Assembly (NCBI RefSeq): GCF_026914265.1
Contig: NC_069131.1
Span: 8,634,001-8,698,000, forward strand
DNA length: 64,000 nt
Source of the DNA: Mya arenaria
Lineage: Eukaryota > Mollusca > Bivalvia > Myida > Myidae
Direction: 5' to 3'
Shown here: positions 3,849 to 46,009 of the stretch, in pieces
Position numbering within the stretch: the stretch's first letter is position 1
How the letters are laid out: every line of letters begins with the position of its first letter
Translations under genes and position numbers: made by a program
Notes under the pieces: model-generated
Told to the model about the DNA's origin: nothing
Databases searched by the model: none
What the model saw: the letters and a program-made list of their open reading frames with translations, nothing else

Positions 3849-3921
3849 ATGGAGATAAAGGCTCAAACAGTTTTTTTGAAAATAGTATTATTCGTTTCCT
3901 TCGGATTTTATCTGTGCGGTG
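3849..3921 (+). CDS. Signal-peptide exon of the first EGF receptor gene
   Basis: ATG followed by a short polar stretch and a hydrophobic core (VFLKIVLFVSFGFYLCG). The exon ends at a good donor, GTG|GTAAGC. Its length is 73 bases and it ends in phase 1, exactly like the signal exon of the phosphatase gene at 32770-32842. This shared length and phase supports common descent. Confidence 0.7.
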
Positions 3922-4659
3922 GTAAGCTGAATAATATATTGTACATCATCATGTTTAGACTTTAATAGTATGTTGATATTTCACTTTAAGTAATTTTTAA
4001 ATCAACTTATATATCACAGACAGTCATCTCTTCGACTTATTTCGATATAGTGTAAACTGTAATTTACTTATCAATCGCTCTGCAGCCAATATAAAGATAC
4101 CCATGATGTACTCCTAAGTCTAATGACATGTAGACGCATTAACTTATGCGGCAGTGACTCCTTATTTGTTCCGTTTATTACATAATAAGAAGTATTTCGA
4201 CGATTTATTCGCATGTTCCTATGATTCCTTTGCAAGTGGTTCGTTTAAGTCATAGTTCATGATAGCTCTTCTACGAATTCCCGTGTGGAAAGCGGTGTGC
4301 ATTTATTGTGTTCATTGCGATTAAATGAGTTACTATTCTTTTAATCCTATCTCGAAAAATCACTCCCATAAAAACACCCGGTCCTATTTCTACCTTCTAC
4401 ATCTTTTGAATACAGGCATCTTTTTTATGCTAATAGCTTGAAAATGATTTAGAGCTTCACATGAGGAATAAATAATTAACTCCCTCATTACTACTAATAC
4501 TGTATGTAATACAATATAATATAATATACTTAATGTAAACATACCGTGTTTGATTAAAACAACACAGTTATCAAATTCCGATCTTTTCTAACCTAACTCT
4601 TTTCATCTAACTATACATAGAGCTCATCTAAAAATATCCATTCATTGGTGTGTTTAATG

Positions 4660-4858
4660 CACCAGTCAATTCCCCGCCCTGCGGGGACGAACTGATGGTA
4701 AAATCCCGGCCAAATCTCCGCTAAATTTGGCGCTAAAACAAAACCACCGCGGTCACTCGGCCCTGCGGGGCCACATTGAAAGTAAAAACACGGCCATTTT
4801 CCCCGGCTATCCCGGTATACCCCCGGACCTGGGGGGCCGTGGTAACAATTGACTGGTG
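4660..4858. mobile_element. GC-rich MITE with CACCAGTCAATT ends, short copy
   Basis: Begins CACCAGTCAATT and ends AATTGACTGGTG. The interior is rich in CCGG/GCGG and contains a CCCCGGACCTGGGGGG palindrome. A second, longer copy lies at 57286-57593 and shares the interior strings CTGCGGGGCCAC and GTAAAAACACGGCC. It stands out sharply from the AT-rich surroundings. No coding capacity, so a non-autonomous inverted-repeat element. It lies inside the first intron of the EGF receptor gene. Confidence 0.8.
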
Positions 4859-5639: not shown

Positions 5640-6330
5640 ATGGTTCGTGCTAATACTGTACATTTGTTATCGCTTAATGTTCACGAATTACGAGAAAAAA
5701 AAACGTGTACGTTTAATTGAATGGTTAAAAGCCCAGAGAACCGACATTGTATTATAACAAGAAACGCATTTTACAGAAGATATTTAACAAATTATTAAAC
5801 ATGTTTGATCAATTGTACACTTTTTATTACTATCATGCAAAAACATACCTCTTAATGATATTACGAGTATTTACTGACATTTACCAAATCTACATAAAAC
5901 ACAATTTTGAAAATCCCTATATGCACACCTGCTTGAATTACTCACGTGAGAATATTAATTGGAAATCTTGGTATTGTATAACACATAAATCAGTCGTTGA
6001 CAACAAAGTAAAACAATTTAAAATAAAATTACTTAATAAGTTCGTTCCGACCAACTAAAATTTATTTTCTTGGATTATAAAAGATTCCCCTTTGTTTATC
6101 AGTTGTACTGGAGTAGAAGATTACAAACATTTCTTTTATACATTGTCCTACCTATCTGTTTTTGGAACTCTTTTTGGAATAAATGACGTGTTAAACATAA
6201 CTTTGAAATAAATCAAATATATTTTCAAGGCATATGAAATAGACCAAAAAAAGTGTAATGCTCTATATGTTGCCCTTAGCCAAATAGCATACTGTATCTA
6301 TAACATATATTTTTTAAGCGAACGAAGATC
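5640..6330 (+). mobile_element. LINE remnant: endonuclease start joined to C-terminal end
   Basis: The first 130 bases translate to an apurinic-endonuclease-like start (SLNVHELREKKKR, then LIEWLKAQRTDIV and QETHF after one stop), typical of L1-like LINE ORF2. About 5750-6180 reads as the far C-terminal end of the same protein class (WYCITHKSVVDNKVKQFKIK, then LFSWIIKDSPLF and EDYKHFF). The whole reverse transcriptase is absent. It is thus an internally deleted copy with stops, not able to move. The exact 3' limit is unclear. It lies just before the EGF exon that begins at about 6435 and may have replaced the missing first EGF module. Confidence 0.75.
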
Positions 6331-6434
6331 AGTTTATGTTAATATTTTGTTTTATTTCTACAACGATCTAATTGTTCTCCAAAATATTATTCAAACAAAA
6401 ATGTGTCATCTCGTTTTTTTTAATGATTTTGTAA

Positions 6435-7875
6435 AATGTACTTAAGATACTTTTCAAGTCTAATTGTCAACAGTGTATTTATCCAAATTGCAAAACATGT
6501 TCTAATGCGTCAAACTGTGACTCCTGCAACGACGGTTTTTGGGGTGAAAAATGTGAGGCAATATGTGCAGAAGGGTGTGTTGATAAAATATGCATTATCA
6601 ATAACGGTTTTTGTTCTTGTCTTACGAACTATTACGGAAATAAATGCGATGGACAATGTTCAGACCATTGCGTTTATTCCACTTGCTTTGGTGATAGTGG
6701 TTTTTGTGTGTGTAAACAAGGATATTTTGGGGCAGCGTGTCGCTCATAATGTGGCAATTATTGCGCCGATTGTATGAATATCACGTCATGCTCATTGTGT
6801 GAAACAGGAAAGTTCGGTAGCTCGTGTAAATTCTATTGTCAATGTGATGCAGGCTGTGATATTGTGAACGGAATGTGTCTCCCTTGTGGAACAGACTGTT
6901 TGTCTTGCAATAATAACGTGTGCACTTCATGTGTTACGGGAAAATATGGAAGTCGATGTGAGCATACGTGCTCGTCTACCTGCTATGATGTGTGTGACAA
7001 TCAAGGGAATTGTCAGTCGTGTGTGTCAGGGTATTATGGGCATCAATGTGAATTAAAATGCAATTGTGAGTTCGGGTGAGATCAACTTCAAGGCAACTGT
7101 TTGAATGAAGCTTGCCCAATAAATTGTAATGGTACCTGTGATGATTCTTCACAGACATGCTATTCATGTAATCGTGGTTATCACGGACCATATTGCAACT
7201 TTACTTGCCCTGGTAAATGTGCTGATTCACGTTGTTATACCAATGGTAGATGTTTGTCCTGTGAATCGGGATATTACGGAAACAGTTGCAACATGGAATG
7301 CAAACAGAGCTGTGAGAGTAATATATGTCGTCAGAAAGATGGATTATGTCAGGTCTGCCCAGCAAACTGTGTATCATGTGAGTCCAAATCCACTTGCACC
7401 GTTTGCCTAGAATCGAACTATGGACAAATCTGTCATTTACCTCGCAACGACGAGTGTACTGATAAGATATGCAATATCAAAGGAGTATGTAACGATTGTT
7501 CTTCGTTATCTGCTTTTGGTAGTTACTGCAATTTAACTTGCAATCATAATTGTCATTTGTCTACATGTGATAGATACACAGGTGCCTGTAATAGCTGTAA
7601 AAATAATTCAGTGTTTGGAATGTTTTGTAATGAAACATGTAGTCCGTTTTGTCTTGGTAACGAATGTAAACGAGAGGATGGGGTTTGTTTAAACGGATGC
7701 AGAGATGGATACTTTGGAACTAAATGTGATCAGGAATGTTCTAAAGGATGCCGAAATAGTTCAAGAACAATATGTGATCAGGAATGCCGAAATAGTTCAG
7801 GATTGATATGTGATCTAAAAGGATCATGTCTTGAGGGCTGTGCTGATGGATACTTCGGCGAACGATGCAAATCAG
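6435..7875 (+). pseudogene. EGF-array exon of the first receptor gene
   Basis: A single large exon encodes about ten cysteine-rich MEGF-type modules. Repeated signatures are GYYGNSC, GKYGSRC, GYFGTKC and GYYGHQC, with CxxC pairs between them. The exon ends TGC AAA TCA G|GTAAAA in phase 1, the same as the phosphatase paralogue. The acceptor is uncertain: the frame opens at 6435, and AG dinucleotides at 6446 and 6458 would both give phase 0, not the phase 1 left by the signal exon. Two in-frame nonsense codons interrupt it. Near the 3' end, about 7725-7815, a block (CDQEC, CRNSS) is duplicated in tandem. Confidence 0.75.
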
Positions 7876-7989
7876 GTAAAAGCTCCAAATATTTGTTTAA
7901 AAAATTAACTTGCAAGATATCGAAGATACAGATATCAAAACTGCAAATTCCACTGAACTGAAAATAACACAGTGATAAAACATGGTATT

Positions 7990-8363
7990 TGATTGAAAAG
8001 CATAAAGAGGAACATGTTATGTATTGACTATTACATAAATTGTATTCTTACTCAATGTGTACGTATTAGGAATGTTGCATGCAGTGTTGGAATCACACGT
8101 AATTTTATTAATTATCAATGTTTTGTATTTCATACGGAGGTAACCAGTGGCCTTATAGTTGTCAATCGTGTACAGGGATCGGTTCTAATCCCGTGTACGA
8201 CGATAATAGTGTAATGTGTATACTTTGTTAAAATATTAAACTTGAATGAAATGGACATATCGTTATAGATGCCATTTTTGGTAACAGTATTACATATATT
8301 CGTTCAATGGAACTTAACCGTCAAAGATATATAAGGCGTACCTAATAAGACCCCCCCCCCCCC

Positions 8364-8402
<39 letters not shown>

Positions 8403-8900: not shown

Positions 8901-8901
8901 A

Positions 8902-10795: not shown

Positions 10796-12226
10796 ATGGC
10801 CGTAACCAACAAACTGAAGAAACTAACTCTGGTTCTGTGATCGGTGGAGCGGTTGGTGGTGTGCTTGGTGTGTGTGCTGTCGTAGCGCTAGTGGTGGTCG
10901 TCCTGGTATTGAAGAAAAAAGGGATTATTTGGTAAATATTTCCTCATGAAAAGTTAGTGTAGAAGCGATAAAGAATTACAATATGTTATTTTTCTCGTAA
11001 TACTGAACTACAGCGCTGTGTTTAATCATTTTTTTTATTTTAAGATTGATATTACAAATTTCTTGTTTCTAATAATTTTAAAAACATGTTTAGGTTCGAC
11101 GGTAAAAAATCAATATTTGTTGATGATATAAGGATACGAATGTGCAAAAGTCAAATAGAAAGAAGGCAAATCGTTGAACTCGTTACCTCTGGTTCTGGAG
11201 TCAATTTGTAACGTCTACACTACTTGGGACTTATACTGGGTGGATATGTTAAACACATGCCTTAATGGCGGCGGAATTTGTCAATTTGCATTGTGTTGTA
11301 TAGGCATATTGAAAAATCAGTTCTTTAGAACAACGTTATCATGTTGCCGACGGTTTGCGTTAAAAGCTGTTTAATAATTGGAAGGGTTACTCTTTTCTGT
11401 ATTTCATTGTGTTGAATATCAAATGAGAGCATATACGCCGGAATGCCCTTGTAATTGATAGTTTAACGTCTTCCTGTTCTTTTTTGCCACACAGGAAGGA
11501 GATCAAGAAGACCTATGAGGATATATCACCAAGAAGAAGCCAAGATGAACCGTACACAACATTGGCTGTTGCGAGCACGAGTATACACATTTTGTTCTTT
11601 GTATTTTTGTTATACTGTCAGAGTTCCATTAATACATCATAGTACTTAGAGTTTCAGTGAAAACATGTTATTTCTTATTATTTGAACTTATATCAAGAGC
11701 AATGATAACTGTGACTGCAGTTGAGTTTCTTGGTATATAACAAAGCCTTGCCTACGAATATCACAGGCAACATCATTTTTATATACATTTTTCAGTAACA
11801 TTGATGATTTGAAGGTGCTCATTTTGGCGCCTGCATCTTTCAGTTTAAAATGGTACAGAGAGTATTCAAAAATGTTTCGGACAACAAAATAATGATAATA
11901 TTGCATAGGTAATAGTTCCTAATATATTATAAAAACTCTTATCAAAATACGCGGTAGTACCTACTATCGAAAATAATTATTAAACAAATTCAGAGAATAG
12001 ATATAAAAAGGTATGAGATCGTATTGTTGATACTTGCGTCATTCCACATTAAATTGTATTCGAAGTTCAGCTAATAATCAGAATCATTTCCGTTAAAGCC
12101 GAGTACGAAATACCCGACTCGGAGCCAAGGTCCGAGCTGACCATCGAAGGTGAAGACAACCGGGTGTATTACAATGATGAAAGGACCTACTACAAGAATG
12201 TCGGGGGAAATGTTCATAAGACATGA
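10796..12226 (+). CDS. Transmembrane helix and ITAM-like cytoplasmic tail exons
   Basis: Exon 10796-10931 encodes a glycine-rich entry (GSVIGGAVGGVLGV), a hydrophobic helix (AVVALVVVVLVL) and a KKK stop-transfer. Exon 11495-11580 begins WKEIKKT and carries YEDISPRRSQDEPYTTL, two YxxI/L boxes separated by nine residues. Exon 12099-12226 adds EYEIP and VYYN (a Grb2-type YxN match), then stops. Acceptors are TTTCAG, CACACAG and TTAAAG; donors are TTG|GTAAAT and ACGA|GTATAC; phases agree throughout. Draper and related engulfment receptors signal through ITAM or NPxY/YxxL tail motifs, so a kinase-recruiting tail is a fair inference. These exons show no stops, unlike the EGF exon upstream. Confidence 0.7.
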
Positions 12227-27583: not shown

Positions 27584-27728
27584 TGTCTTTGTAAGACTGA
27601 GTAAGTAAACAACACGTCGTGTCAGGTTCGATCCTTTTACTCAACTATCCTATATATATAAAACAACGGAAGTGACGTCGACGTTAAGTCTTTATGCGCG
27701 TAATGTTATACAAATACAATTCATGACA
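27584..27728 (-). repeat. 5' LTR of the BEL/Pao element
   Basis: About 145 bases, the upstream LTR in element orientation. It shares TGTCTTTGTAAGACT at its left end and CAATTCATGACA at its right end with the 22193-22363 copy. Confidence 0.85.
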
Positions 27729-29826: not shown

Positions 29827-30540
29827 GCACCAGCACATGAGCGGACATGCTTTTTACTCAGTCGAACTACACTCAATTCCCTATCTTTTTAAGAATCACT
29901 TTATGCAAATGGATATTTTATATTTAGCTTTTTGTAATGTCATACTATATAAAATTATAACTGTAATGTTGGTACAATTATTATGCGTAAATTTCGGCCG
30001 CTGTCGATCACTTTGTGTCAGGAAAACGTAATGAAACGTCTCATAGTTTAAGATATATAGGATCTGTCATGATTCGTCATTCAATTCATATTTTATTCAA
30101 CGTGTTTCGGAAATGTATTCGTAAGCGAGCCTTTAACGAGCTTATCTACATATTTCCTGGACTAGTTTTATACAATTGATGACGAGTGTCAGATTAATTT
30201 TAGCAATAAAGAATATGACCGAGCTGTTTTACCTGCGGTGATTATGAGCCGAATACCACAAACCAATGCCATTACCCGCGCTACATCATTTCAGAATTGC
30301 AGTATCTTGAGAGATTTAAAACAACATATACCTCCGATCGTTTTCATTCCGTCACATCCGGTTATATGACGTCATCATTATTACCAATTAATCAGTTTTA
30401 TTACTTTATCACAGACATGCGGGGTGATTTTCTGACCAATAGAAATTGAACAATGTTATATTTCACATGTGTATTACAGAAGAACACGTGATGGTTATAT
30501 TAAATCGGATTAATGTATAGAATAAGTAATGCGGTTAAAG
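29827..30540. other. Spacer without recognisable features
   Basis: No exon or repeat end recognised between the ISL2EU block and the transmembrane-exon relic. Confidence 0.4.
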
Positions 30541-30665
30541 AAGGCCGTACTAAACAAACTGAAAAAACTAACACTGGTTCTGTGATCGGTGGAGCGGTTG
30601 GTGGTGTGCTTAGCTTTTGTTGTCGTACCACTAGTGGTGATTGTGCGTGTATTGAAATAAAGTAA
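30541..30665 (+). pseudogene. Relic of the EGF-receptor transmembrane exon
   Basis: Nearly repeats exon 10796-10931: GRTKQTEKTNTGSVIGGAVG against GRNQQTEETNSGSVIGGAVG. The frame is lost inside the helix through missing bases and an apparent stop (GAAATAAAG) replaces the basic stop-transfer. It shows that at least one more full receptor copy once lay between the two genes. Confidence 0.75.
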
Positions 30666-32640
30666 TTGTTAGATAAATATTTCTTTTTAACGTACCAATG
30701 CTGCCGTAAATTCGATAATAATGCAACATATTCTTTCACAGGATTCTCTTCTTCAACGCTCTCATTTTTGCTTCATTTTTGTTTAAATCCACATGAATGA
30801 CAAGTGTATGATAACAAATTTGCTAATATTCTGAAAATCAGCTAGAGCTATTTAAATAGATTAGAGGAATGTATACAGAACCTAGATGGAACTCAGTAGT
30901 CTTATTGCAAAACCTAGTGTTATTTTGTTTAAATGATAAATCAGCAAAAGCCGAAAACAAACGTATACTGAACCAACTTAAAAACAACTAAACTAGAAAC
31001 ACAGCAATTTTATTTATGTAAGTTTGTATAAGGTAATTTTAGAAAGTAGTTATACAAGTTAATATAATTACCTTATTATTTCATTATAATTTCATTGGTC
31101 GATATTTATAACTTCACTGTTATACACAAAACAGCATACGAAGTTGACTTCATATTGTTGATATCAGTGCCAAATCGGACCTTTGTTTGCATTTAGGCAA
31201 CAACAACATTTATTTATGAAATTATGTAGTGGCACACACTAACGTCTGCTTTCGTCGCTTTACAGCTATTTTTGGTGCTGAATTTCAATATTAAACATGC
31301 ATAATCAATTCATTCTTTGCCAGATTTGTTTGTGTAATTCTTTGCAAGATTTGTTTGTGTAATATGGAGTTGGGCTAATTTTAGGAAAGCAGATTTTATC
31401 CGATTAAGGCTTAAACAGCTATGGTAATATTTCGAAGGCTCTTAAACATACGCAAACAAATAATTTGACAACAAAATCAATTAAACATCTTAAGATTTAA
31501 GTCAAAAGGAGGTAACAAGAAACTCAAACATCAACTAAAATATAATAAGAATATTAACAATATCTCATTTCAGCTTGTACCTTCGAAGTAAAAAGACGTC
31601 TTATCTCTTCACGCACAGAAATACAAATTAATTAGGGTTTGTATAGAATCAAATCCAGAAATTCAACAATGAATACACTGGTCACTTGAGGGACGATAGC
31701 CGTGAATATAAACCACTTTCAATTTTGCCCAATCCCACCTTTCAAAAGGAGTTATTCTATATGTTTCGCGCATAAACCAGATAATAATCTAGGTAGTTTG
31801 TTTAAAACAACTTTCGTTTTGATACAATTGTGATTAAAAAGGTAGGTGTTTATAAATGTTCGTGCTTTAGTTAAAATTCTTGTCGATGGAAGTGACTGGC
31901 ATTATTTTCTGACAAATATGTCAGTGCTGAAGCAATAAATCTAATATGCAAAAGAACATAAAGCCATCCATCAATTAGTGCCTGTGTGTCATTTGAATTG
32001 AAATAGCTGTGAAAAAATGCCCATCTTGTTGACCTATCTTAAACAGCGTATAGCATGAGAATTATATTTCTTGTTTGCCCTAACCATTGTGTTGGTGTCC
32101 ATTTAGTATAATGTAATAAGTTTATCTTAATACCGGGGCGTAGCAAATTGCATATAGAACACCATTCGTACCCACAAGTGTTCCGTCTCTATTCCGTGCG
32201 TTGTTATGATAACCTACCATAAATCATGGGTCATTATTTAGATGGTTATTTTCTTTAGGCAACGATAAACCAAACAGTTATCATCAAATGACATTGAACA
32301 TGTTTTGATAACATGGAATGGTTAAGTATGTTCATGATTTATCACAACCTTTCATTACACAATATAGACAATAATTGACAAGGGAGCTATTGAATATGAT
32401 CTTATATTACCTGTTAGAAAATCATATTGACCGAGGTAGTATCTAATAAGGAAGATTTATTTTCTGCTAACTATTATATATTATATAGAATCGCTTAATC
32501 ACAATAAGTTAATCTATACTATTTATCAGATGAAATCCTTTATGCAAGTTAAACAAGTATGTATTAGTAGTTTGTAGTATGCTATGCCTATTATACGTAC
32601 CGAACCTTCTTTGTTCATTTAAAATAATTCAGTGTAGCAT
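30666..32640. other. Spacer upstream of the phosphatase gene
   Basis: No EGF exon or known repeat recognised. CAGATTTGTTTGTGTAAT and a near copy lie side by side at about 31321 and 31349. Distal regulatory sequence is possible but not visible. Confidence 0.4.
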
Positions 32641-32769: not shown

Positions 32770-35700
32770 ATGAATCTCATTCAATGGGCTGTGTTTTTTA
32801 TTTTTACATTATACCTTACTGTGGATATTTGCATGTCTGTTGGTAAGAGTTTTCCTTTTTCTACATTAGTTCTTAAAGTCATTTGAGAAGTCATCATAAA
32901 TTATCATTCCATTTCATACATCTCAACATGATTTTCACCGAAGTTATTGTGCGTCCAATCATTTAAATTGAACAGCAGAACTTTGTTTTATTACAGAAAT
33001 AATTTCAGATATTTTGAGCAGAAGATAAAAATATCTAGTCGTTTTAACAGCAAATAATTTTGGCTTCCTGTGTTGTGTGTTATTACTTTTGTCCAATTGG
33101 GTAAAATTAAAGTTGATTATTATGTATAACTCTTCAAAATTATTTAATATGTCGACCCATTCGTGTTAAGTACATAGAGGATATTACATAAACACTTATT
33201 CAAAACGGAATTTATTAAACAAGTTAGACATAATTCGTATTAATCGAGCACGAATGTATAAATGCAGAGGACTAAATAAATAAAATGACGTCATATAGCG
33301 AGTTCATTGTTTATCCAATTTGTTTATGGCGTCAAACGGTTTTTCACTAGTTATATATAAAAAGGCGGTGTCATTTATGATATAAATAATTATATAACCA
33401 TAATGTTTTCACCATCTCTGACCGATTCTGCCCTCTATGGTATAAATATGTATATCCATACATAGTTATATGTATTTATTAATCTCAAATTATAGGACCG
33501 GGCTGATTTTAGCATGTACATTCTATTCAAATGTCACAAATGCAATAGTTCCATGTATGTTTGAAATGTCTTTGAAACGCGTACAAAACCGTGCATACTC
33601 ATATTCGTTTATGTTATTATGACTTTAAAATAAAAAAATACTTGTAATCATCAAGCTTGCCCATTAGGAATGTTGCATATATTAGCTGTTTGCACAAAGG
33701 TATGATAATATTGACACCTTTGTTTTTTCACACGAAGGTAACCACTGTCCTGAATCTTGTAAAGAGTGTACTAAGACAGAAAATGATATCGTGTGCCACT
33801 GCAACTCATCAGAGTATTTCTTCAACGGAGGATGTGTTCCATGTACCGCCGTTGGGCTTGACTGTATACGATGTAGCAAGGCGTCTCAATGTGAAGAATG
33901 CATCCCAGGAAAATGGGGACCACAGTGTATCAACAAATGTGGAAGGGGCTGTAAAGATGGAAAATGTAATCATGAGGACGGGTCGTGTACATGCATTCGA
34001 GGATTTCACGGATCTGACTGCAAAATGCAATGTTCACCTAACTGCTTGGGCAACACTTGCTTGGACAATGGTCACTGCAATTGTACAACGGGATATTATT
34101 TACCAACGTGTACTGCACAATGTTACTCGGCATGTGAAGAATGTTCTAACGCTTCCTCATGTACTGTTTGCCCGAATGGAAGATTTGGAGATAAATGTCA
34201 AAATGAATGTCAATGCAGCAACACGATTGGCTGTGACATAATAACGGGTGCATGTATAACTAGGACGTGTCCACATGCATGCATATCATGTGTTAACAGT
34301 GATCACTGCAATGAGTGCACTGTTGGGTGGTTCGGATTAAAATGTGACTTAGAGTGTCCAAGAAATTGTAATGGGGGATGTTTCAAGCCCTCTGGCGTTT
34401 GTAATGCATGTTCAAAGACATATTACGGCTCAAAATGTGATAAAGAATGTTATTATTGTGGTGACAATGACTGTAAACAAAATGGAGAATGCTACAAGTG
34501 CTACCCAGGTTTCTATGGTTCATTTTGTAACTTAACATGTACATATCCATGTACTGCAACGTGCAATCAGGAAGACGGATCATGTACCTTAAATTGTCCT
34601 GCAAACTGCTTAAGCTGTTCAGATAGTGCAACATGCACTAAATGCAAAAACCTTTACTACGGACAGCTTTGTGGTTCACTGTGTAGCCCTACGTGTAAAC
34701 AGGGAAAGTGTGACATACAGTCAGGCCATTGCGTGGAATGCAATTCGTCATCGTACAAAGGAGACTTTTGCAACACTACCTGTAGCTCCATATGCTCCTC
34801 AAATGGATGCGAAAGACAAACTGGAAGTTGTATTGGGTGCTTGGATGAGAAGGTTTATGGAGCATTTTGCAATTTTACATGTAACACTAATTGCAAGAAT
34901 CAAATATGTTTACAAGGAAACGGTTACTGCACAAATGGATGTATATCTAATTATTATGGCACAACGTGTGAGAAAATCTGCTCTGAGAATTGTGCCAACT
35001 CAACAACAGAGTCAAAATGTTACTCATCAGGAAAGTGCATAAGTGGGTGTGTTGATGGTTTCAGCGGCGATACGTGTATATCGGGTATATTTTCATTTGT
35101 TGTATTGAATATTGTTAGATTTGTAAATTATAATGTAGTTACAAATAGATGTTGAAATTATTCATGTTTGATATCTTATTTGGCACATGCTACTACCCGC
35201 CCATGTAGTTTCCGTCATCATATTAATATGATTTCATATAATATATTGACTTACATTTAGATATACCAATTGAACAACGCGTTTCTGTTTGAATGTCCTT
35301 CAGGAGCTAATACGGAGAACGGAAAAAGTGATGTAGCTGCTATAGGAGGAGGTGTGGGAGGGATGTTGGTGTTCGCTGTGGTCGTCGTTTTGATTATCAT
35401 CTTCCTTAAAAGGAGGTGAGTTATTCTAGGGATATATCATGTTAGTGTTTTCGACATCAGTTTTCCTCATTCTTGATGGAAATTGCATATTGTATAACAT
35501 TTGGTAGCACTGTAGACATGTCTTTTTGTAAATGCACTAGAAAATGATTGCAATGTTTACTACGAATTACATGAACATTACCAGACGAATAAGAAGTTCA
35601 TTGTAATACGATTATCCAAAGCCACAAATGATTATATATTTTTCTTCATTAAGACATTATTAACTGACGTATTCAAAATGAATCTGTGGTAACTATTTTA

Positions 35701-38456
35701 ATTGCGATTTTTATTTAGAAGAAATAGAAAGCCCAATGAAGATCAAAGTGAAGATATTGATTTTGAGTGTCAAACAATAGAGCCATTACATGGAGGTATA
35801 TGTATATTTTTTTTTTAATTTCGCCTTTAATATTTTTAGCTTTGTTTATTGCCTTATAACAAGGTTTTTTAAATCAAGGTTATCAGATTCGTGTATGTCG
35901 TTTGGCGAGCGATAGGGCAGATTGATACCGCACAGATAGTTTCATTAAGTCGTGTCCGAGCTGTAACTTGGCCAAGTATAAGGGGATTTCAAAATAACTT
36001 ATGCACACTTTCAAATGTTCACCCATAAGGGTCATTTGGTAATATTTCTTGTAATTTGATTTGCAAGCCATGCATGTATGTAGGTCAAGAGTCAAGCTCA
36101 CACTTAATGGTCAACATTGCTTTAAATGTTACCGGTCTGGGCTGTAATTGGCCACTTCTTTGAGGATTTTGAAACACTTTTCACCATATGAATCCAGCGT
36201 GTGTGTTACAAGACATATATCGGCAGGTTAAATAACAAGCTCATGCTTAATGGAAATTGAATTTAAAAAATCCTTGCTGTTTTGCTTGTCTACATGGCTA
36301 TACATTGGCTATACATTGTAGGATTATAAAATACTTTGGCAACAATATTCACTATGAGAAGCCAGCGTTTGCATGCAAGACCCGTGTCTGTTGGTCATAT
36401 GTCAATGTCAAACTAAGGAATCATTGGTCAAGATTCCTTCTTATATGGCATGTCTGGGCCGTAATTAAGCCATGCATTGGGGGATTTAAAAATAACTTAT
36501 TATTAAATTATGAGAAGCCGAGAAGAGGTAGGTCAGAGTTCAAGGTCAAACGTAAGGGAAGATTCCTTGCAGTTTGGCTTGTCCTGGCTTTAACTTGGCC
36601 ATGCGTTTGGGATTAAAATATAACGAATTTTAACCTGTCTCTTTAACAAAACCAATTAAACAACATTAGTTCCATATTTATAAATACACTTTGATATTTT
36701 ATCCAGCAACCTTTCACGGGACTGTTTTATCATATCTATTCAGTGGCGGGCTTGACATTGATGACATTTTTAACGACAAAGCTCAAGCATATACAGCGCA
36801 AAAAGAGTTACACATTTTCATCTGCATGCCGATCCATCATTCGTTCAAACTTCCCTGAACGTTCTGAGAAAGCAAATTTAAAACCAGGTTTTCTTCGCAT
36901 ATCGACGGTTCTAGTTCAGAATTGATAACGTCGGTATATATAATAATTTCATTGTTTTAATCCTTTTCACATATCATGTTCATAATATAATGAGAATTTA
37001 ACTGGATTTGGCTGAAACAATTTGTTTCGAATGCTTAGCTTAATTAATTATACTCAACTAAAAAATAAACGTACAAAAAGTGTCAAAACCTTTTTTAACA
37101 TTTTATTTGACCTAACTTGTATGCGTTATTATACAGATTTTCCAGGCAAACATGTTTCCACGAAAGCAACAACCGCACCGACGTTAGGAACATTAAACGT
37201 TAATTACAACCATGTATCGGACACATTAATGCTCGGTGGTGGCTTGGAAACAGCTACGGAAGATGATGATCTAGAAGTTGGTTAGTTTGAAACAAATTGT
37301 ACATACTTTAATTGAAACTAGTAAAATAATAAGGTTTGTATGTGTCATTAAGTTTTTATAACGCTAATAATTCCAAAAAATTATATGTATGTACTAGATG
37401 GAAAATGTGTTTGTGTTCAACCGATTATTAGACTGCTAATCACCTCCATGAATAAGATAGCTATGTGTCGACCTCATATATAAAGACGACCTCATATAAT
37501 ATTTGAAAATTCCCGAAGCAACAACTAAATTTCTTAATATTATATTGAGATTTTCTGGTTGACAGGCATCATAGATAAAAAAAATGCCTTATTGAGAACA
37601 ATTTCAACTTCTAAAATGTAAGCTCTCTGATAAAGTTCACTGATTTATTAAATACACTTAAATTTTAAATTACAACACTTTTTCTTTTCGGACCGATGTT
37701 TAATTCTCGATCAAAATACGGACGGTATCAACGATTGCCAATTGTACATAAAGCTAGTGAACTAAACGTATAAATGTTTTCCTGTGACATTTTAAATAAA
37801 TAGGAATATACCACATTGTAATATCTAATGACATATAAATCTGACAGATTTAGACGAAGAGAGAAGGTCCCAAAAAAGGAAACTGGCAAAGAAGGTTGAG
37901 GAGAACGTTTACTACATCGGTATACAGGATATAGAGAAACGGAAAGTGAAAGTGGAGGAACTGGCGGCTTTTGTGGCTGGAAAGACTCTGGATTACTATG
38001 AGGAGGAATTTGATGTACTTGTCAGTTACATAAGCAACACGAATATATATAGTTTTTGTTCTTTGTATATCAAATACGTAACGCTAGTAAAACAATTTAA
38101 AATATGAGTAAAATATAATAAAAAAGCAACTTATAGCATTTTAATTGTAATACAAACTATTTTAGCCTATATATTTGCCTTTCTCTCCTGCAGAATTTCT
38201 CTGACGGCCTCACAAGGAGCTGTGACGCTGCCAAAATACCTCAAAACAGGGCGAAAAACAGATACAAGGGATTATATGCATGTAACAATACCATTGAAGT
38301 TAAATCATTAAAATTCACCGATCCATGGGCATTGATTTCTAATGAAAATTTATTTTACTGCAGTTCAGTTTGAATTAAAACAAGGCTATAAAATTGCTTT
38401 ATCTCTAAATAATAACTAGGATTTATTATCATTATTTTTGTTATTATTATTATTAT

Positions 38457-38509
<53 letters not shown>

Positions 38510-41500
38510 AAATTTAAATTTAAGTATTTATTTATTTTCTATTTTCTTTAATTGTGTTTCCAGATGATGCTACAAGGGTGAAAGTGACTGGTTTTGATAC
38601 TGATTACATCAATGCTAACTACATCGATGTATGTATAAGAACCAAAATACTCAATAAGTTGAAGTGAACTTTAAATGAAATAAATCAAAAACGTATCAAG
38701 TACACTAACAATAATTATTAAAGTTAACGTGATCTTCTACTTACAGGGTTTCAAGGAGAGAAATGCGTATATTGCCTCGCTTGGTAAGAATATATACATA
38801 TTTTCGATATTTACATGTCCGTGAAACCTTCATTTTTGCTAGCGATGATCCTCCAGTAATTAATTTATTGGAACATTGCAAATCATTACTTTGTATTTCT
38901 AAGAATGAGACGGACTACTTTATAACACTCTTTCTTTAAAGAGATATACATCGGGAAAGCAACAATGACATTCATGCATAAATGAAAGATACAACATACA
39001 AAAGGCAATTGCTACCGTTTCTATGGTGTTTTGTATTCCCAGGTCCAATGTCGAAACAGATGGGAGACTTTGGCATGTTTTGGAGTATGATTTGGCAACA
39101 AAAGGTGGAGAAGATTGTCATGGTTACCAACCTGATAGAGGAAGGGGTATAAAGACAATTAATGTGCAAACTTAACCCCGTTAATTAAAACATTCATTCA
39201 AGTACACCAGTATTTCGAAAAATATAAATATATTGAAAAAGGCTTCATATACTGAATTCTTTTTCGATTATTTGAATGCCATTTTAATGTATAACATAAT
39301 TGCAATGTTACCATTGGAATGACCAAACTCGACAAACAAGTATGCGTTAGTCAAATTCAGTTATCGCAATCGCTAAGGCGTTCGGATTATAAAACTATCA
39401 CACAATAACACATGTCAACACAACAACATTGCACACAGATTCTATCATTGTTATCTAAGTCCTTTTTGTATCATCAGAAGGAGAAATGCGAGCAGTACTG
39501 GCCCAATGTTGGGACCACTTTGACCTACAGCGGGGTGAAGGTCACCTGTCAGAGCGAGGATGAGTATGCAGAGTTTACGAGAAGGTTGCTGCTCCTAAAT
39601 GATGTAAGTGTAGTTCGATGTCATTGTTCATTCTAATTATAATTTCAATGCGTACCTATATCAAATATTGTTTTAACATGTGATTTAGAGGAAAAATAAG
39701 ACCCGTTTTGCCGCGACTGCATTTAAAATAATTGTTTCAATGCATATACATTTTTTTCTAAATGAAATATTGTTCCTTATTAACGAACTTGAATATTAAC
39801 AACTATTATCATATGCATTAACATAAATCAGTGAGTCGTATGTATGTACTTTCCAATTTAAATACTTGTCGCTACAAACATATACCATAACTTGTGAAAA
39901 TTAGGCAAAATACCCGGAAGATTAAAATGTACTCAAAACTAAATGTAAACCGTCCGTAATGCTGATGATTAATCTCACTTTACGCTAAACGAATAAGCAC
40001 AAAAGAACACAAAAATATTGCCATTGTACGGAAGAATATTCATTAATTTCTCTGTGCAAGCAATACTATATAAAGCAGTAAATATGTTCGTTTAAAGTCC
40101 TTTGCTTAATTACATGAAACACTGATATTAATTTAAACATTACAAGCAAAGGTAACACACATTAATTTGTATCTAGATTTATTTTTAGTTTGGTAGTTGA
40201 CCGAAATATTTATCATACAGTGAAAACTGACATATGTACTCGATCTTATTAGATTTTGGTTAAATAAATTACACCCACAACCCTAAATGTCAGTGCCTGT
40301 GCATAATAACACACTACAGTCTACGTCCATCGCTTAAAGGACAATGTTTAAAAGCAATGACCTCGGTATCTTATGAAAATATCTTAAAAAACACAGGTAA
40401 TTAATGAAACAAAACACACCTTAACAATAATTGAAATATTACGGTCAACTACAGCGTGGTCAAGGGCACCTGTCAGAGCGAGGAAGTATGACATAAATGT
40501 TCCGCTGACGCGACTGAATCAAAATTCAGTACTCGAATTAGAATATTAATTTAGTGTAAGCAATTATTTGTTGACCAATGAAAAGGTACATTAGGGCTGT
40601 GGCCACACACTTTCTTTAGCACATGAAAGATTTAAGCCATTGTGTACCTTATGTCTTTTCTATATTAACCAGTGTGCTTGGACGACCAATTTAAATTTTA
40701 AGACACATAATCGTAGTCATCAAATCAATCTCTGATTCGGATATGTCTACTAGTTCAAACACTTTAACGTCTCAACCATTCAACTTAATAGTTTGACAAG
40801 GCTTAAATGAAATATAGGCAAAATACACGGAAGTTTAAACAGTAAGCAAACCTAAACTTAAAGCACTCGTAAATTCTAATGTGTATTTCGACTTCACGCT
40901 ACCGGAATAAACACAAAAGATTTACGGAGCGATAGACACTATATTGAAGAATGCTTTTAACATCTTGCGTTAAGTTGAGAATGAAGCGATAAAATGCGTT
41001 TTTCCTTATTATTCACGTATTATGTTATATATCCTTATCTATGCATCCAATGCTTCTGCTTAAAGTGCTTTGTTGAATTAGTAGCTGAATATCAATATAA
41101 AAATTACAAGGAAAGATAACCAGGTTTGACTCGTTATATGCTTCCTTATGAGTTGCTGTTCTAAAACTTACACAATTGATACGAACTTATTCAATATTAA
41201 TCATGTTGATGAAATGTAGAAAGAATTGAACAAGTTAAAGCATTAGATAAATAATACAAATTACACAACACCATCCCACATAAAAAAAATTGTAGAAGGA
41301 TCAAGGCTGTTAAAAACGAAGTTGAATTATATATTTCTACCTGGTGTACATTTAAATGTAAAGATTGTTAAAATTCACTTCAATGGAGTTTTTTTATAAA
41401 AAGAGTCAGGTAATTTGGTCGGTCGGGGTGTATGTGATGTATAAGACTGTAAACACAATTAAGAACTATATCAATTGAAACTTGGTAGCAATATGCCTTC

Positions 41501-43762
41501 CCCTTGACTACGGCACCATGGCATCAACTAAAGTACACTAACAACGATCAATTGTTTGAGTTATATACAATTCATAACTATATACCAATCTTGACAATCT
41601 CATTAAAAACAAATTCATGGCGTTACAACGAAATGCTATGGAAATCAGCGTAAAGCGAACGCCACGAAATTATTAAACCGGAAAACAGAGAGAGAGAGAG
41701 GTGGGGGGCGCGTGGGAGGAGGGGGGCTCCGTAAAGTATTATGACAATATGGAGTCCACAAAAAGCAGGTTATTTCACAAATAGGAATGTATGACCTGTT
41801 TTCAAAATACAACATGCAAGTATGTTTTAACTAGAAAACATAATAAAAACTATTTCAGGGAGAATCTGAGAGGCAGCTGCACCAACTCCACTTCACGGCC
41901 TGGCCGGATAGGGGAATCCCAGAGGACGTCACAGCGCTGATTGAGTTCCGACATAGAGTGTTCAATTCTCCTGCTCATCTTGGCGGTCCAACACTGGTCC
42001 ATTGCAGGTGAAGATTATTTATTGTTCAATTTTTAAACCTTTGCACCTGTTATAAAAGTACTATTTGAGAGCGTTACAGAGCATTCCAAGCATACAGATA
42101 TGTTCTAACTTTGTACCAGTTCGTGCCAAGGAGGAATGCGAGCCAAGCTAGCTCGAGCTAACGGGGTTCGACTGTAATTGCAAGTGTGAGATTTTTTTAT
42201 TGCATATTCAAGAGCCATTGTCATGTTATGAACGTCAAAGATCAGAGCGTCACGGATTCAGTTAAGAAAGATGGTACTCACTGATTGCCCCTGTACATGT
42301 TGATGTCCCACCAACGCTGGTCGCATAAAAGGAAATAATGAATTATAAGTTCTTTAATGAATTTGTCCTGAAGGGAATGTTTTACAACACTAGTAAGGCT
42401 ATAATGGACCATTACAAAGAAAAACACAGAACTAGGGGAACTAAAATCGCTCTCAAGTGCACAAGCATTAGGTCAGACAGTAAGCAAGACATCACAAATA
42501 ATGTGAGTGTTTTCTTTGTACGTGTTGATACAGAACCAGCAATAAACACATTTGAAGCTCTATTGTATGTCCATTAAAACGTTCATGTAAAAACTAGTGA
42601 TAAAGGTGTCCTCCTCTCACGCAAGCGGTCCTGTTTTCGATCGCCATTAGAACCATTACTTGGTCTATAAAATATGACACAGATGACACAGTATTGGTTT
42701 CCAAGTGGACTCGAGAGTGATTTATATCAGCTTTCCAGCACTCTTTATAATGGAGTGTAAAATACATTTGTATAAATTAATAAATAGCGCATTGCCTTTT
42801 ACCATTTGTTATGATCGATAAATGTCATATATGGATGTTCCTTTTAGTGCGGGAATCGGTCGAACAGGGACATATATTGCGTTAGATATTCTAACAAAGG
42901 AAGGCAATTCGAACAACGCCGTTGAGATTCCAGGATGCATCATCAATATGAGACAGAACAGGCCAAACATGGTCCAGACAGCGGTAGGTTGATATGTGAA
43001 TCCTTGAACCACAAAGAACGTAACGGGAGTGACAAAGTAATAGAGAAGTGCAGAAATATAGGGAGGTTCAGAAAATATTAATACAAACTGCGTTCTTACA
43101 TTTTGTCGTACCTTAAAAGTTGTAGTTATAGTTGTAACTCAGCTATGCACGTCTAAAAGATATACCTATTGCATAATTGCTGGATATTTCATGTCCTCTT
43201 TGCAGCCTCAATGGCTTATCAGTTGTCTATTTTCTTCTTGCAGTTTTGTTTTTCTACGTTTACATGTCATATTGGAATTACACAATGTTTATGCTTTACT
43301 TCTGATATGCGTTTTCATAGAACCAATGCACACACAAACGAACCATGAGTATATAAGTGTGTGTGTCTGTCCTGATTTCAGGAACAGTACGAGTTTCTAC
43401 ACCTTGCCCTGGTTCACACCCTGACTTTTAACTGTGAGCAGATACCAGGTAAACAGTTTCAGGACTACATGATAGAGACCAGCAAAGGCGATCTTATCAG
43501 GCAGTTAAAGGTAACGGAATGTGCTTTTGCATTTGCCCAAAGTGAGTATACTTATCAATATTTAGTGCTGCTGTCAATAAGTAGTGTTAACCTGATAATT
43601 ACATAACGATGTTCACTTGGTATTTAAAGTGTATTTATCCAGATACAAACAGTCAAACGAAAGTAACTGTCCCACCTATTAGGCTAAAATTGACAGTTTT
43701 ATTCAAAATGAATGAGTAATATGTTTCTTTGAAACAGATGTAAATGCACATTATGCCCAGAA

Positions 43763-43803
<41 letters not shown>

Positions 43804-46009
43804 TCATAACACAAACGAAATGGCAGTGTAAAGTATTTCTCCTTTGTAGAAAATAAAGGACACTCCCCACGTTCACACTGACGATGAAGTCGTTGCTATT
43901 GGACGAAACAAGTCTGAGAAAGGAAAGAACAGAAGTGGAGCAGATATTCCAGGTGCACGCTTGTAAAGAATATCGCGTACTCATTACCCACTTTATGAAA
44001 TACCCAACATATATCAACAAGCCATACGTAACGCTTCAGCTCTGCTGACCTAATATCATAACCAGTATAACTGCGCGATGACATTCGGTAATGAAATAGT
44101 GCGCTATCAAAATGTAAAATTATGTTAACTCAAAAGGTATATAATAAAAGGGTTATTACTTTCAGGCGATGAATACCGCCCTCGACTTTATCTGGGAATA
44201 AGCAATGGTGATTCAGATTATGTCAATGCTGTCTTTGTTCATGTAAGGGTGTATAAATATTATTATTCAACAATTTCAAAGAACATTTCAAGTTCAAACA
44301 TTTTACATTTAACATTTGCTCTAATTAACGGTAGTTTCTCCAAACATATACAGCCAGTTAAAGTATTTACATATCGTGTTCGTCCATCGCCGTACATTCA
44401 ATTTATGTTGCAGGCGTTTCAGGCGAAACGGAAATATATTGTCGCACAGTCTCCAATGCCAAATACTGTACAGGATTTCCTTAATTTGGCATACCAAGAA
44501 AATTGTTCATGCATTGTCAGCTTTGAGCAAAGTGACGGCAAAAAGGTACGATTAAGAAAATATATATTCCTGTCATTTTGTCAAAAGTCTGTAATGAGTC
44601 GTCTCGATGAAATTACATGAAGTTCTCTCTTGCTGCTGTTTCATTTCAAGACGGAAGAACATAATATATAAATTTCAACTATCTCCTACTGTAGAGGATG
44701 TTCTTTGCACAAGTCTTAATCAAATCCTTATTAACGGAATTTCATTAAAAAAAGAACTTAACATTATTTCCACTAGGATATAGGTGAATATTATCCAGCG
44801 GACAATCAAGAACTCAAGAAAGGTCAACTGACTATTTCATGTGGGAGGGATAAGGTCACGAACGAGTACAACATCCAGAAATGGCTAACTATTGAGTTCA
44901 AGGGAAGCACACAGGTTAGTGTACATGTATACATCGCATACATGTAACTGAATGTACATCATTTGTAAGAAGATTATTTGTGGGGGGTTTAAAACAATAA
45001 AGTAATTTCGGCGTAAAAATGTAATGGATGCCATCAAGAACAAAGAGTAGTTTTGAAACTTTCTTTGCTTTTATTGAACAGTTTAATGTATATTATTGAT
45101 TTTGTTTAATGAAAGTATGCTTTCATATATGTAGTTTTGGTTTTTGTTACAGAGTGAAGGTGGCAAGAGCACATTGCGACACTTTGAGTTTACAGACTGG
45201 AACCAGACTGGAAATGTTCCAAGCAGCCTTGCTAACTATGTCGCATTTCTGAGAGATGTCAAAATGGCATCGTCCAATGGGCCTGTTCTTGTCCACTGCA
45301 GGTAGTACAAATTCAAGCTTTGTAACCCATGTGTTCTCGTTGGATTTTATACACTTTTTTTACTATCTGGATTGCGGGATTTTGGACCAAATATGTTTTC
45401 ATTTGAACTAACATTCACTTTAATCAATCTTATATGCTATATATATCAGGGATGGTGGTAGTAAGAGCGGGCTGTTCTGTGTTATGGCATTCCTCTTGGA
45501 GAAATTGGTAGTAGAGCACGAGGTCAGTGTGGTAAATGCCGTCAGGAGGGTCAAAGCCAGGAGACCCAACGCAGTGGCCAATCAGGTAAGCTAACCATTT
45601 AATTGGTTTTAATTTCGAATTAACATATATCTGAGCTTAATACAAGTGCGTATTATGCCCATTAACGAAAGAGTCAACATAATTAAATTAAATATATATG
45701 TACATATATGTTTGGTCTTCTTTAAAACCCTCTTTCTTTGGCAAATAGTAAGCTTACTATAATCTACGTATTCGCAGGGAATAACGATGACAACCCCGAT
45801 ATAATTAAGTAGTGTACGATATGATATATTCAACTTAATATCCTTTACAAACAATGCAAAGAACGGAGAGTCATAGCTTACTCTACTGCATTTAACCAAT
45901 GTAGTTTGATATTTTCTATTTGTAGGCACAGTTCGACTTCTGCCATGATTGTGTTCTGGAGTTTGTCCGCTCGTTCAAAACATACTCCAATTTCAGCGAA
46001 GATATATAA
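32770..46009 (+). CDS. Receptor-type protein tyrosine phosphatase with EGF-array ectodomain
   Basis: Twenty-one exons join in frame to 1190 residues: 32770-32842, 33738-35084, 35304-35415, 35719-35795, 37137-37280, 37848-38014, 38194-38281, 38564-38628, 38747-38783, 39043-39146, 39478-39603, 41859-42007, 42848-42983, 43382-43510, 43850-43952, 44166-44242, 44414-44545, 44777-44914, 45153-45301, 45450-45585, 45926-46009. All introns are GT-AG with matching phases. The product should sit in the plasma membrane: signal peptide (MNLIQWAVFFIFTLYLTVDI), about ten EGF modules, one helix, D1 and D2. Vertebrate receptor phosphatases carry Ig, FN3, MAM or carbonic-anhydrase ectodomains, so the MEGF-like ectodomain is unusual; similar predicted genes occur in bivalves. 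It probably removes phosphate from tyrosines of nearby receptors. No stop or frameshift is seen. Confidence 0.9.
33738..35084 (+). CDS. Single-exon EGF-array ectodomain of the phosphatase
   Basis: One exon of 1347 bases, phase 1 at both ends, holds the whole ectodomain. It begins GNHCPESCKEC and contains repeated module ends GKWGPQC, GFHGSDC, GRFGDKC, GWFGLKC, TYYGSKC, GFYGSFC, LYYGQLC, NYYGTTC and GFSGDTC. Spacing with short CxxC loops matches the MEGF10/stabilin-like EGF subtype more than calcium-binding EGF. Many NxS/T sequons (for example NFT, NTT, NLT) predict heavy glycosylation. The symmetric 1-1 phase makes the array a ready exon-shuffling unit. It is homologous to exon 6435-7875, which keeps the same 3' phase. 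Confidence 0.9.
35304..37280 (+). CDS. Transmembrane and juxtamembrane exons of the phosphatase
   Basis: Exon 35304-35415 gives AAIGGGVGGMLVFAVVVVLI and the stop-transfer FLKRR. Its glycine-rich entry resembles GSVIGGAVGGVLG of the first receptor. Exon 35719-35795 is acidic (NEDQSEDIDFEC). Exon 37137-37280 is a serine/threonine-rich linker ending TATEDDDLEV. Exon joins are in phases 2, 1 and 1. The approximately 1.3 kb intron between the last two contains a tandem repeat. Confidence 0.85.
35930..36640. repeat. Intronic tandem repeat, unit about 150-220 bases, four diverged copies
   Basis: Each copy carries a core like GTCTGGGCTGTAATTGGCCA followed by GGGGATTT and AAAATAAC. Cores start near 35950, 36135, 36448 and 36580. 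Other shared strings are ATGAGAAGCC and GGTCAAAC. Divergence is substantial, so the array is old. A 119-codon open frame over two of the copies is a by-product. Confidence 0.75.
37848..43510 (+). CDS. Phosphatase domain D1 (catalytic)
   Basis: Nine exons spread over 37848-43510 hold D1. In order: YYEEEFDNFSDGL (N-terminal helix), KNRYKGLYAYDATRV (the phosphotyrosine-recognition loop region), DYINANYIDGF, EKCEQYWP, FTAWPDRGIPED (WPD loop with the general acid Asp), VHCSAGIGRTG (P-loop with nucleophile Cys and Arg), and NMVQTAEQYEFLH (Q loop). All catalytic residues of classical tyrosine phosphatases are present, so D1 should be active. The P-loop serine codon is split by the intron 42008-42847. 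The intron 39604-41858 holds a tandem duplication with a decayed exon copy. Confidence 0.92.
38441..38510 (+). repeat. TTA then TAG trinucleotide array
   Basis: About six TTA units followed by about 16 TAG units in a phosphatase intron, only some 50 bases before the 38564 exon. Its length may vary between individuals. Confidence 0.9.
39480..41130 (+). repeat. Tandem intron duplication with a decayed PTP exon copy
   Basis: Positions 40440-40492 read ACAGCGTGGTCAAGGGCACC and CTGTCAGAGCGAGGA, a worn copy of part of exon 39478-39603 (ACAGCGGGGTGAAGGTCACC). Downstream strings repeat with an offset of about 915 bases: AGGCAAAATACCCGGAAG at about 39902 and AGGCAAAATACACGGAAG at about 40816; also TTTGCTTAATTACATGAAAC and TTTGTTGAATTAGTAGCTGA. 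So exon plus following intron was duplicated in tandem. The second exon copy has an early stop and lost its splice sites. Confidence 0.8.
42105..42175. mobile_element. End fragment of a pogo-like MITE
   Basis: CGAGCTAACGGGGTTCGACTG followed by TA near 42152-42174 matches the right end of the element at 51524-52268 (CGAGCCAACGAGTTTCGACTG, TA). Only one end is recognisable. It lies in the intron that splits the D1 P-loop codon. Confidence 0.55.
43766..43801. repeat. TA dinucleotide repeat
   Basis: About 18 TA units in the intron between D1 and D2 of the phosphatase, roughly 50 bases before the first D2 exon. Confidence 0.95.
43850..46009 (+). CDS. Phosphatase domain D2 (degenerate)
   Basis: Eight exons hold D2: DEYRPRLYLGISNGDSDYVN, then FQAKRKYIVAQSPMPNTV, CSCIVSFEQ, FEFTDWNQTG at the WPD position, VHCRDGGSKSG at the P-loop and VRRVKARRPNAVANQ. 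The nucleophile Cys is kept, but the invariant P-loop Arg is Lys and the WPD proline-aspartate is replaced (DWN). Inactive D2 domains are usual in receptor phosphatases and act in regulation or dimerisation. The CDS ends FSEDI and TAA at 46007-46009, only nine codons after the last helix. Confidence 0.9.

What the first reader, a model, noticed from the sequence alone, without database searches (positions are those of the whole stretch)
3849..46009. Possible paired-receptor locus: ITAM-tail and phosphatase-tail EGF receptors
Two neighbouring genes on the same strand share a 73-base phase-1 signal exon, a single large EGF exon ending in the same phase, and a glycine-rich helix entry. Their tails are opposite: one has YEDI-x9-YTTL (ITAM-like), the other an active tyrosine phosphatase domain. 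In vertebrate immunity such pairs of related ectodomains with opposing tails are called paired receptors. I know of no described invertebrate EGF/phosphatase version. The functional link is inference.
Basis: partly seen in the sequence, partly recalled or inferred. Interest (0 to 1): 0.85.

Follow-up and report, generated by a model that had tools for sequence, protein, structure and literature searches.

The report
Clam array of opposing-tail EGF receptors
A soft-shell clam chromosome carries dozens of neighbouring receptor genes in which related outer parts are joined either to a likely switch-on tail or to a phosphatase tail, much like the paired immune receptors of vertebrates; of the two genes first noticed, one is dead and one looks intact.

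Summary
The window lies on chromosome C10 of a clam, by protein matches Mya arenaria. Both genes exist, but gene 1 (ITAM tail) is a pseudogene: its EGF exon has two in-frame stops and lacks its 5' end. Gene 2 (phosphatase tail) is intact and equals an NCBI protein.

They are not each other's pair: their ectodomains are 36% identical and belong to two clades, A and B. One level up, the idea gains strong support. They sit in an array of 41 ITAM-tail and 30 phosphatase-tail clusters. A-ITAM, A-PTP, B-ITAM and B-PTP all occur with open exons. In clade B the tail switched at least 6 times (one PTP clade rejected, p-AU 4e-80); in clade A one PTP clade is not rejected. One gene is, in DNA, gene 2's kind of EGF exon joined to gene 1's kind of tail. 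The ITAM is kept in 19 of 21 exons seen, catalytic motifs in 20 of 20 and 20 of 20.

Shown: architecture, interleaving, reassortment, motif conservation. Inferred: ITAM signalling, shared ligand, opposition, immune role. It works like paired receptors with a built-in phosphatase; membership is unproven. Two near-identical mirror-image blocks may inflate counts.

The parts
138..1378 (-). Relic of an A-type EGF exon, with stops and frame breaks
   Evidence: tblastn pieces; inverted repeat to gene 1's EGF exon, 76-84% (I1-I4)
3849..3921 (+). Gene 1 signal exon, 73 bases, phase-1 end
   Evidence: 84% to the A-type signal peptide of P0034
6462..7875 (+). Gene 1 EGF exon (clade A), broken: TAA 6747-6749, TGA 7077-7079, 5' end missing
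10796..10931 (+). Gene 1 TM exon, ITAM type
11495..11580 (+). Gene 1 ITAM exon, YEDI-x9-YTTL at 11514-11564
12099..12224 (+). Gene 1 last exon, five further tyrosines after the YEIP site's own, TGA after it in frame
   Evidence: EYEIP, VYYND, YYKNV
30533..30682 (+). Relic of another ITAM-type TM exon between the two genes
   Evidence: 86% over 88 nt to 10788-10875
32770..32842 (+). Gene 2 signal exon, 73 bases, phase-1 end
33738..35084 (+). Gene 2 EGF exon (clade B), open, phase 1 at both ends
   Evidence: EGF-rod model
35304..35415 (+). Gene 2 TM exon, PTP type
35719..37280 (+). Gene 2 juxtamembrane exons (two)
37848..43510 (+). Gene 2 exons of PTP D1, with WPD and HCSAGIGRTG; VYYIGI just before it
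43850..46009 (+). Gene 2 exons of PTP D2 (HCRDGGSKSG, probably inactive) to the stop

Best explanation
The window holds one stretch of a large tandem array of single-pass receptors on Mya arenaria chromosome 10. Each intact member has a signal exon, one EGF-repeat exon, a TM exon and one of two tails: a short ITAM tail or a tandem protein tyrosine phosphatase. Recombination between the signal/ectodomain half and the TM/tail half put the same ectodomain families onto both tails (shown by sequence). Inferred: on binding a target, ITAM-tail members are phosphorylated by Src-type kinases and recruit a Syk/Shark-type kinase, as Draper does, to start engulfment or activation; PTP-tail members with related ectodomains are drawn to the same target and remove those phosphates. 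That makes an activating/inhibitory receptor set whose inhibitory member carries its own enzyme. Gene 1 is a dead ITAM member of clade A; gene 2 is an intact phosphatase member of clade B.
For: Array of 41 ITAM-tail and 30 PTP-tail clusters, interleaved, one strand per block apart from one flipped pair. 63 of 68 EGF exons assigned to a tail by position: A-ITAM 13, A-PTP 8, B-ITAM 23, B-PTP 18, outlier-PTP 1; open exons 6, 7, 18, 15, 1. All four main combinations seen in DNA (L039-L042 and gene 2) and in annotated proteins. L039 joins a gene-2-type EGF exon (79% DNA) to a gene-1-type tail region (78% DNA over 1.8 kb). At least 6 tail switches in clade B. Signal peptides go with the ectodomain, not the tail (12 compared). 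ITAM kept in 19 of 21 exons; SAGIGRTG in 20 of 20 and WPD with VHC in 20 of 20 exons fetched. dN/dS 0.33-0.37 for ITAM and last exons. By analogy: oyster agranulocytes express more Draper-family receptors and more than 40 RPTPs at higher levels than granulocytes (PMC13070813, passages).
Against: No ligand, expression or signalling data for Mya. Tails were assigned by position; few joins were read in DNA. In clade A one PTP clade is not rejected. Interleaving is only weakly more regular than random (p 0.03 and 0.12, blocks not independent). The ITAM tail was found in Mya alone (10 of 10 hits). Three annotated PTP models (P0004, P0038, P0042) lack the D1 signature. A phosphatase can also activate Src kinases, as CD45 does (recalled), so 'inhibitory' is not assured.
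Confidence: 0.55

Rival explanations
1. By-product of tandem recombination: the halves shuffle because the genes are neighbours with compatible phase-1 exons, and the two receptor types do unrelated jobs. There is no functional pairing.
For: Phases are compatible. Many members are broken: 16 of the 63 assigned exons. Tail labels in clade B are no more clustered than shuffled labels (175 of 500 as low). Both MEGF-like and RPTP families are expanded elsewhere in this genome.
Against: ITAM and D1 motifs are kept in nearly every copy seen and dN/dS is below 1 for every part tested, so both tails seem to be in use; the mixing has lasted through many duplications.
Confidence: 0.25
2. The PTP-tail members are CD45-like positive regulators that keep Src-type kinases active, so both tails push the same way.
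For: Precedent of CD45 (recalled). The PTP model has an active-looking D1 and a degenerate D2, as many RPTPs do (recalled).
Against: Matched ectodomains on two tails are the usual layout of opposing receptors (PMC2413239, passages); Draper is opposed by the phosphatase Corkscrew (PMC8092387, passages). Neither tests this case.
Confidence: 0.13
3. One EGF exon is spliced to either tail, as in Draper-I/-II: splice variants rather than separate receptors.
For: EGF exons end in phase 1 and both kinds of TM exon modelled here accept that phase. Some NCBI models join odd parts (P0035 has no TM found; P0036 is mixed).
Against: 63 of 68 EGF exons have a tail of their own downstream (median 2.4 kb for ITAM, 5.5 kb for PTP), and gene 2 is complete by itself.
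Confidence: 0.05
4. The array is largely an assembly artefact, two haplotypes laid side by side and counted twice.
For: Four locus comparisons at two mirror gene pairs are 99.2-99.8% identical.
Against: The minus block alone has 11 A-ITAM, 5 A-PTP, 12 B-ITAM and 11 B-PTP exons (my count), and most tree rows differ by far more than alleles would.
Confidence: 0.02

Closest known systems
Draper/MEGF10/CED-1 engulfment receptors, with Draper-I (ITAM) and Draper-II (ITIM, Corkscrew)
   Same: EGF-repeat ectodomain, single TM, ITAM tail; in Draper an ITAM form is opposed by a phosphatase (PMC8092387, passages)
   Different: No EMI domain found by Pfam in 6 array proteins; no NPxY in 10 ITAM-tail proteins; the phosphatase is part of a sister receptor, not recruited; dozens of genes instead of splice forms
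Vertebrate paired receptors (FcR, KIR, FcR-like and kin)
   Same: Clustered genes, related ectodomains on opposing tails, lineage-specific turnover and domain shuffling (PMC2413239, passages)
   Different: Ig domains there, EGF repeats here; ITIM there, catalytic PTP here; shared ligand and expression not tested here
Botryllus fester/FcoR and Hydractinia Alr loci
   Same: Invertebrate receptor clusters with ITAM-like and ITIM motifs, FF and FcoR genes encoded as neighbouring pairs (PMC12065747, passages)
   Different: Ig-type ectodomains and ITIM or hemITAM motifs there; no receptor PTP as a partner in the passages seen
Molluscan EGF-type receptor tyrosine phosphatases
   Same: EGF-type ectodomain, TM and PTP domains in Mercenaria, Sinanodonta, Tegillarca, Solemya, Mactra, Crassostrea, Patella and Bulinus
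   Different: Whether they stand beside ITAM-tail partners is not known here
SCARF1 (scavenger receptor class F member 1)
   Same: Best fold match of gene 2's ectodomain (Foldseek E 1.5e-7) and a weak sequence match of P0039 (E 0.005)
   Different: TM-scores are low (0.07 by query; model pTM 0.32); tails not compared

Membership tests
Paired receptors | Members encoded in one gene cluster | tested here: met
   41 ITAM-tail and 30 PTP-tail clusters interleaved on C10
Paired receptors | Related ectodomains on opposite tails | tested here: met
   not for genes 1 and 2 with each other (36%)
Paired receptors | Activating partner with an ITAM or a link to one | tested here: met
   As a motif only: 19 of 21 exons; no signalling test
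Paired receptors | Inhibitory partner with an ITIM | tested here: inconclusive
   A PTP domain instead; VYYIGI before D1 fits the ITIM pattern in 8 array models (P0001-P0006, P0042, P0043) and P0038, but such patterns are common by chance
Paired receptors | Shared ligand and co-expression in one cell | not testable with these tools
   No Mya expression or binding data held
Draper/MEGF10/CED-1 | N-terminal EMI domain | tested here: not met
   No EMI family at E up to 1 in P0001, P0034, P0039, P0040, P0043, P0061
Draper/MEGF10/CED-1 | EGF-repeat ectodomain | tested here: met
   EGF rods as best fold matches and kinship to molluscan MEGF proteins; Pfam itself names no EGF family
Draper/MEGF10/CED-1 | NPxY motif in the tail | tested here: not met
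   None in the 10 ITAM-tail proteins examined
Receptor tyrosine phosphatase | TM plus PTP D1 with WPD and HCX5R, usually a second PTP domain | tested here: met
   Gene 2; 20 of 20 signature and 20 of 20 WPD exons elsewhere in the array
PTPRK/PTPRM (NCBI's label) | MAM-Ig-FN3 ectodomain (recalled) | tested here: not met
   No MAM, Ig or FN3 family in P0001 at E up to 1
Botryllus FcoR / Hydractinia Alr | Ig-type ectodomain | tested here: not met
   No Ig family in six array proteins; EGF rod

The most novel reading that the evidence does not exclude
An invertebrate paired-receptor system of a kind not described before: scavenger-type EGF ectodomains are dealt out, by repeated recombination, to either an ITAM tail or a catalytic tyrosine phosphatase tail, so that the inhibitory receptor is itself the enzyme. 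In Mya haemocytes such a fast-changing set could set the threshold for engulfing foreign or altered cells, in a species known for contagious cancer (recalled).
Probability: 0.35. Interest if true: 0.85.

Novelty: new variant of a known kind. Interest (0 to 1): 0.72.

Why it matters
Receptor sets with opposing ITAM and ITIM signals are known from vertebrates and, with Ig domains, from a tunicate and a cnidarian. A molluscan array that uses EGF ectodomains and a built-in phosphatase would show that this logic arose again from engulfment-receptor parts, and that the brake can be the enzyme itself rather than a docking motif. It also suggests a reason for the large expansions of EGF and receptor-phosphatase genes in bivalves, and offers natural ectodomain-matched receptors for direct tests.

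Tried and rejected
Rejected: genes 1 and 2 as a matched pair (36% identity, different clades, gene 1 broken). Rejected: that B-ITAM and A-PTP joins are only annotation errors; L039, L040 and L042 show an open EGF exon next to the other tail's exons in genomic DNA, and L039 is a chimera in DNA. Weighed: strict alternation of the tails; the array is interleaved but only weakly more regular than random. Weighed: mirror-image blocks as a source of false counts; the minus block is therefore also counted alone. Led nowhere: papers on this pairing. Searches listed none that describes it; apart from passages in five papers (PMC12065747, PMC13070813, PMC8092387, PMC2413239, PMC7895826) I saw only search listings. 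[quoted passage not shown] The ITAM tail outside Mya: 10 of 10 hits at E up to 1, among 291 candidates, were Mya. A loose ITAM pattern does occur after the TM in five other molluscan MEGF-like proteins (P0023, P0025, P0028, P0055, P0059); three of these were shuffled and matched in 1-3% of trials, but the same pattern also turns up in the tails of eight PTP-bearing proteins, so it is weak.
Full report
What is in the window. Gene 2 is intact. My 21-exon model (32770-46009; [quoted passage not shown] mine has one residue more at the exon 3/4 junction). D1 carries WPD and HCSAGIGRTG; D2 reads HCRDGGSKSG and is probably inactive. Gene 1 has the signal, TM, ITAM (YEDI-x9-YTTL, 11514-11564) and last exons as described. 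Its EGF exon is broken: TAA at 6747-6749, TGA at 7077-7079, and about 30 codons missing at the 5' end. Of six AGs in 6300-6520, two are in frame but run into a stop after 17 and 14 codons and four are out of frame. None of 27 proteins found with gene 1 exceeds 77% identity. Two more relics lie in the window: an A-type EGF exon on the minus strand (138-1378) and an ITAM-type TM exon at 30533-30682.

Where it lies. The window is C10:8634001-8698000 of an 18-contig genome of 1.216 Gb. The length of C10, 74,570,910, equals that of the contig of the Mya proteins. The species name comes from those proteins, not from the genome tool.

The array. Gene 1's TM-plus-tail sequence gave 149 matches; every match with E below 0.001 lies on C10 at 4.89-6.10 Mb or 7.93-8.66 Mb (150 of 180 candidates scored). 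Gene 2's D1 matches fill the same two blocks, with more distant PTPs elsewhere (125 of 1499 candidates scored). Grouped by position they make 41 ITAM-tail and 30 PTP-tail clusters, broken copies included (minus block 27 and 17, 28 runs against 21.9 expected, p 0.03; plus block 14 and 13, 18 runs against 14.5, p 0.12). Scoring limits make these lower bounds, but the blocks are mirror images and not independent: four locus comparisons at two mirror gene pairs gave 99.2-99.8% identity, so some copies may be haplotypes.

Ectodomain and tail are reassorted. EGF-exon searches (94 of 1041 and 87 of 1084 candidates scored) gave 68 exons in the blocks, merged by hand. 63 were assigned to the next tail downstream, 5 were not: A-ITAM 13, A-PTP 8, B-ITAM 23, B-PTP 18, and one outlier (8548999, 'C', labelled BP as L077 in the tree) with PTP. 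Open exons: 6, 7, 18, 15, 1; the open/broken mark is mine, from the stop column and truncation. In the minus block alone the four counts are 11, 5, 12, 11 (my count). Four genes were read in DNA: L039 and L042 are B-ITAM, L041 A-ITAM, L040 A-PTP. L039's EGF exon matches gene 2's at 79% DNA, ending within 4 bases of the exon ends, and its tail region matches gene 1's at 78% over 1.8 kb, introns included. Annotated proteins show the same mosaic: P0034 is A-ITAM; P0035, P0038 and P0043 are A-PTP; P0039, P0040 and P0041 are B-ITAM. Signal peptides go with the ectodomain (12 compared).

Trees. 46 of the 68 exons were used: 44 fetched and the window's two. The protein trees use the longest open stretch of each exon, gene 1 with X at its stops. 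A and B split once; the tail state needs 11 changes (quick method; L077 has a long branch). Within B (26 rows, L077 left out) the tail changed 8 times, at least 6 forced by well-supported branches; one PTP clade is rejected (p-AU 3.8e-80), and the labels are no more clustered than shuffled ones (175 of 500). Within A (19 rows, DNA) 2 changes are needed and one PTP clade is not rejected (p-AU 0.33). So repeated switching is shown for B; for A only that both tails occur. Gene 1's nearest rows include A-PTP and A-ITAM genes; gene 2's clade holds 7 B-PTP and 5 B-ITAM genes.

Constraint. Of 21 ITAM exons seen (of 41 ITAM-tail clusters), 19 keep the motif; the other two, copies of each other, read YEDK. 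Of 26 D1 signature exons in the blocks (my count) 20 were fetched and 20 have SAGIGRTG, one with a stop further on; of 30 WPD exons 20 were fetched and 20 have WPD and VHC (the window's own are not among them). Against this, three annotated array models (P0004, P0038, P0042) lack the D1 signature. Pooled dN/dS, broken copies included: ITAM exon 0.37 (18 copies), last exon 0.33 (17), TM 0.59 (18), ectodomain A 0.49 (18), a part of B 0.42 (10): purifying on average, no sign of strong diversifying selection.

Relatives. EGF-type ectodomains with PTP tails occur in Mercenaria, Sinanodonta, Tegillarca, Solemya, Mactra, Crassostrea, Patella and Bulinus. ITAM-like tails, by a loose pattern, occur in MEGF-like proteins of Ruditapes, Patella and Mercenaria. 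The joint array is shown for Mya only; no other animal genome could be searched. Gene 2's ectodomain is modelled as an EGF rod whose best solved match is SCARF1 (E 1.5e-7, low TM-score; mean pLDDT 78, pTM 0.32).

How it probably works. Shown: two tail types, reassorted ectodomains, conserved ITAM and catalytic motifs. Inferred from Draper (writer Src42a, reader Shark, eraser Corkscrew; PMC8092387, passages): the ITAM tail starts engulfment or activation. Inferred: PTP-tail members drawn to the same target remove ITAM phosphate. By analogy only: oyster circulating agranulocytes express dozens of Draper-family receptors and more than 40 RPTPs at higher levels than granulocytes (PMC13070813, passages). 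A CD45-like positive role of the PTP tail is the chief mechanistic rival, and mere tandem shuffling the chief rival overall.

Known or new. Vertebrate paired receptors, Draper-I/-II, Botryllus FcoR and Hydractinia Alr share the logic (passages). None of those passages describes an EGF receptor array with a built-in phosphatase partner. MEGF is listed among expanded immune families in the figure legend of a vent snail paper, whose abbreviations also name PTPRK (PMC7895826, passages). The searches named under Tried and rejected listed no paper on this pairing; most subscription journals are not held. I file it as a new variant of a known kind: it works like paired receptors, membership unproven.

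Noticed in passing
window 22193-27697 (-): LTR retroelement between the two genes: end repeats 22193-22306 and 27584-27697 are 91% identical, and a 628-aa ORF has integrase H2C2 and DUF5641 domains. The label BEL/Pao is recalled.
   Followed up: partly
G000 C10 4.89-6.10 Mb and 7.93-8.63 Mb: Two mirror-image blocks with 99.2-99.8% identity at the two gene pairs compared: a recent inverted duplication or an uncollapsed haplotype.
   Followed up: partly
G000 C17:40888279-40889817 (-), L001, L002: A two-domain tyrosine phosphatase in one open frame of 881 aa, perhaps a retrogene.
   Followed up: no
G000 C3, C6, C10 (23-42 and 59-71 Mb), C13: Many more PTP exons outside this array (172 matches, 150 of 1851 candidates scored).
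   Followed up: no
protein P0053 (Mytilus californianus): A MEGF-like protein with a kinase domain in its tail (Pfam PF07714, PF00069).
   Followed up: no
protein P0064 (Mya arenaria): An ITAM tail behind a TM segment that by eye looks like the PTP type, which would be another mosaic point.
   Followed up: no
window 8115-8186 (+): Short stretch in gene 1's second intron that matches 7-78 in inverted order (79%) and by eye resembles the 5' edge of a B-type EGF exon.
   Followed up: no
window 21501-21806 (+): Fragment with a YqaJ-like recombinase match.
   Followed up: no
window 62614-63669 (-): 351-aa open frame with weak trypsin-like peptidase matches below Pfam's cut-off.
   Followed up: no
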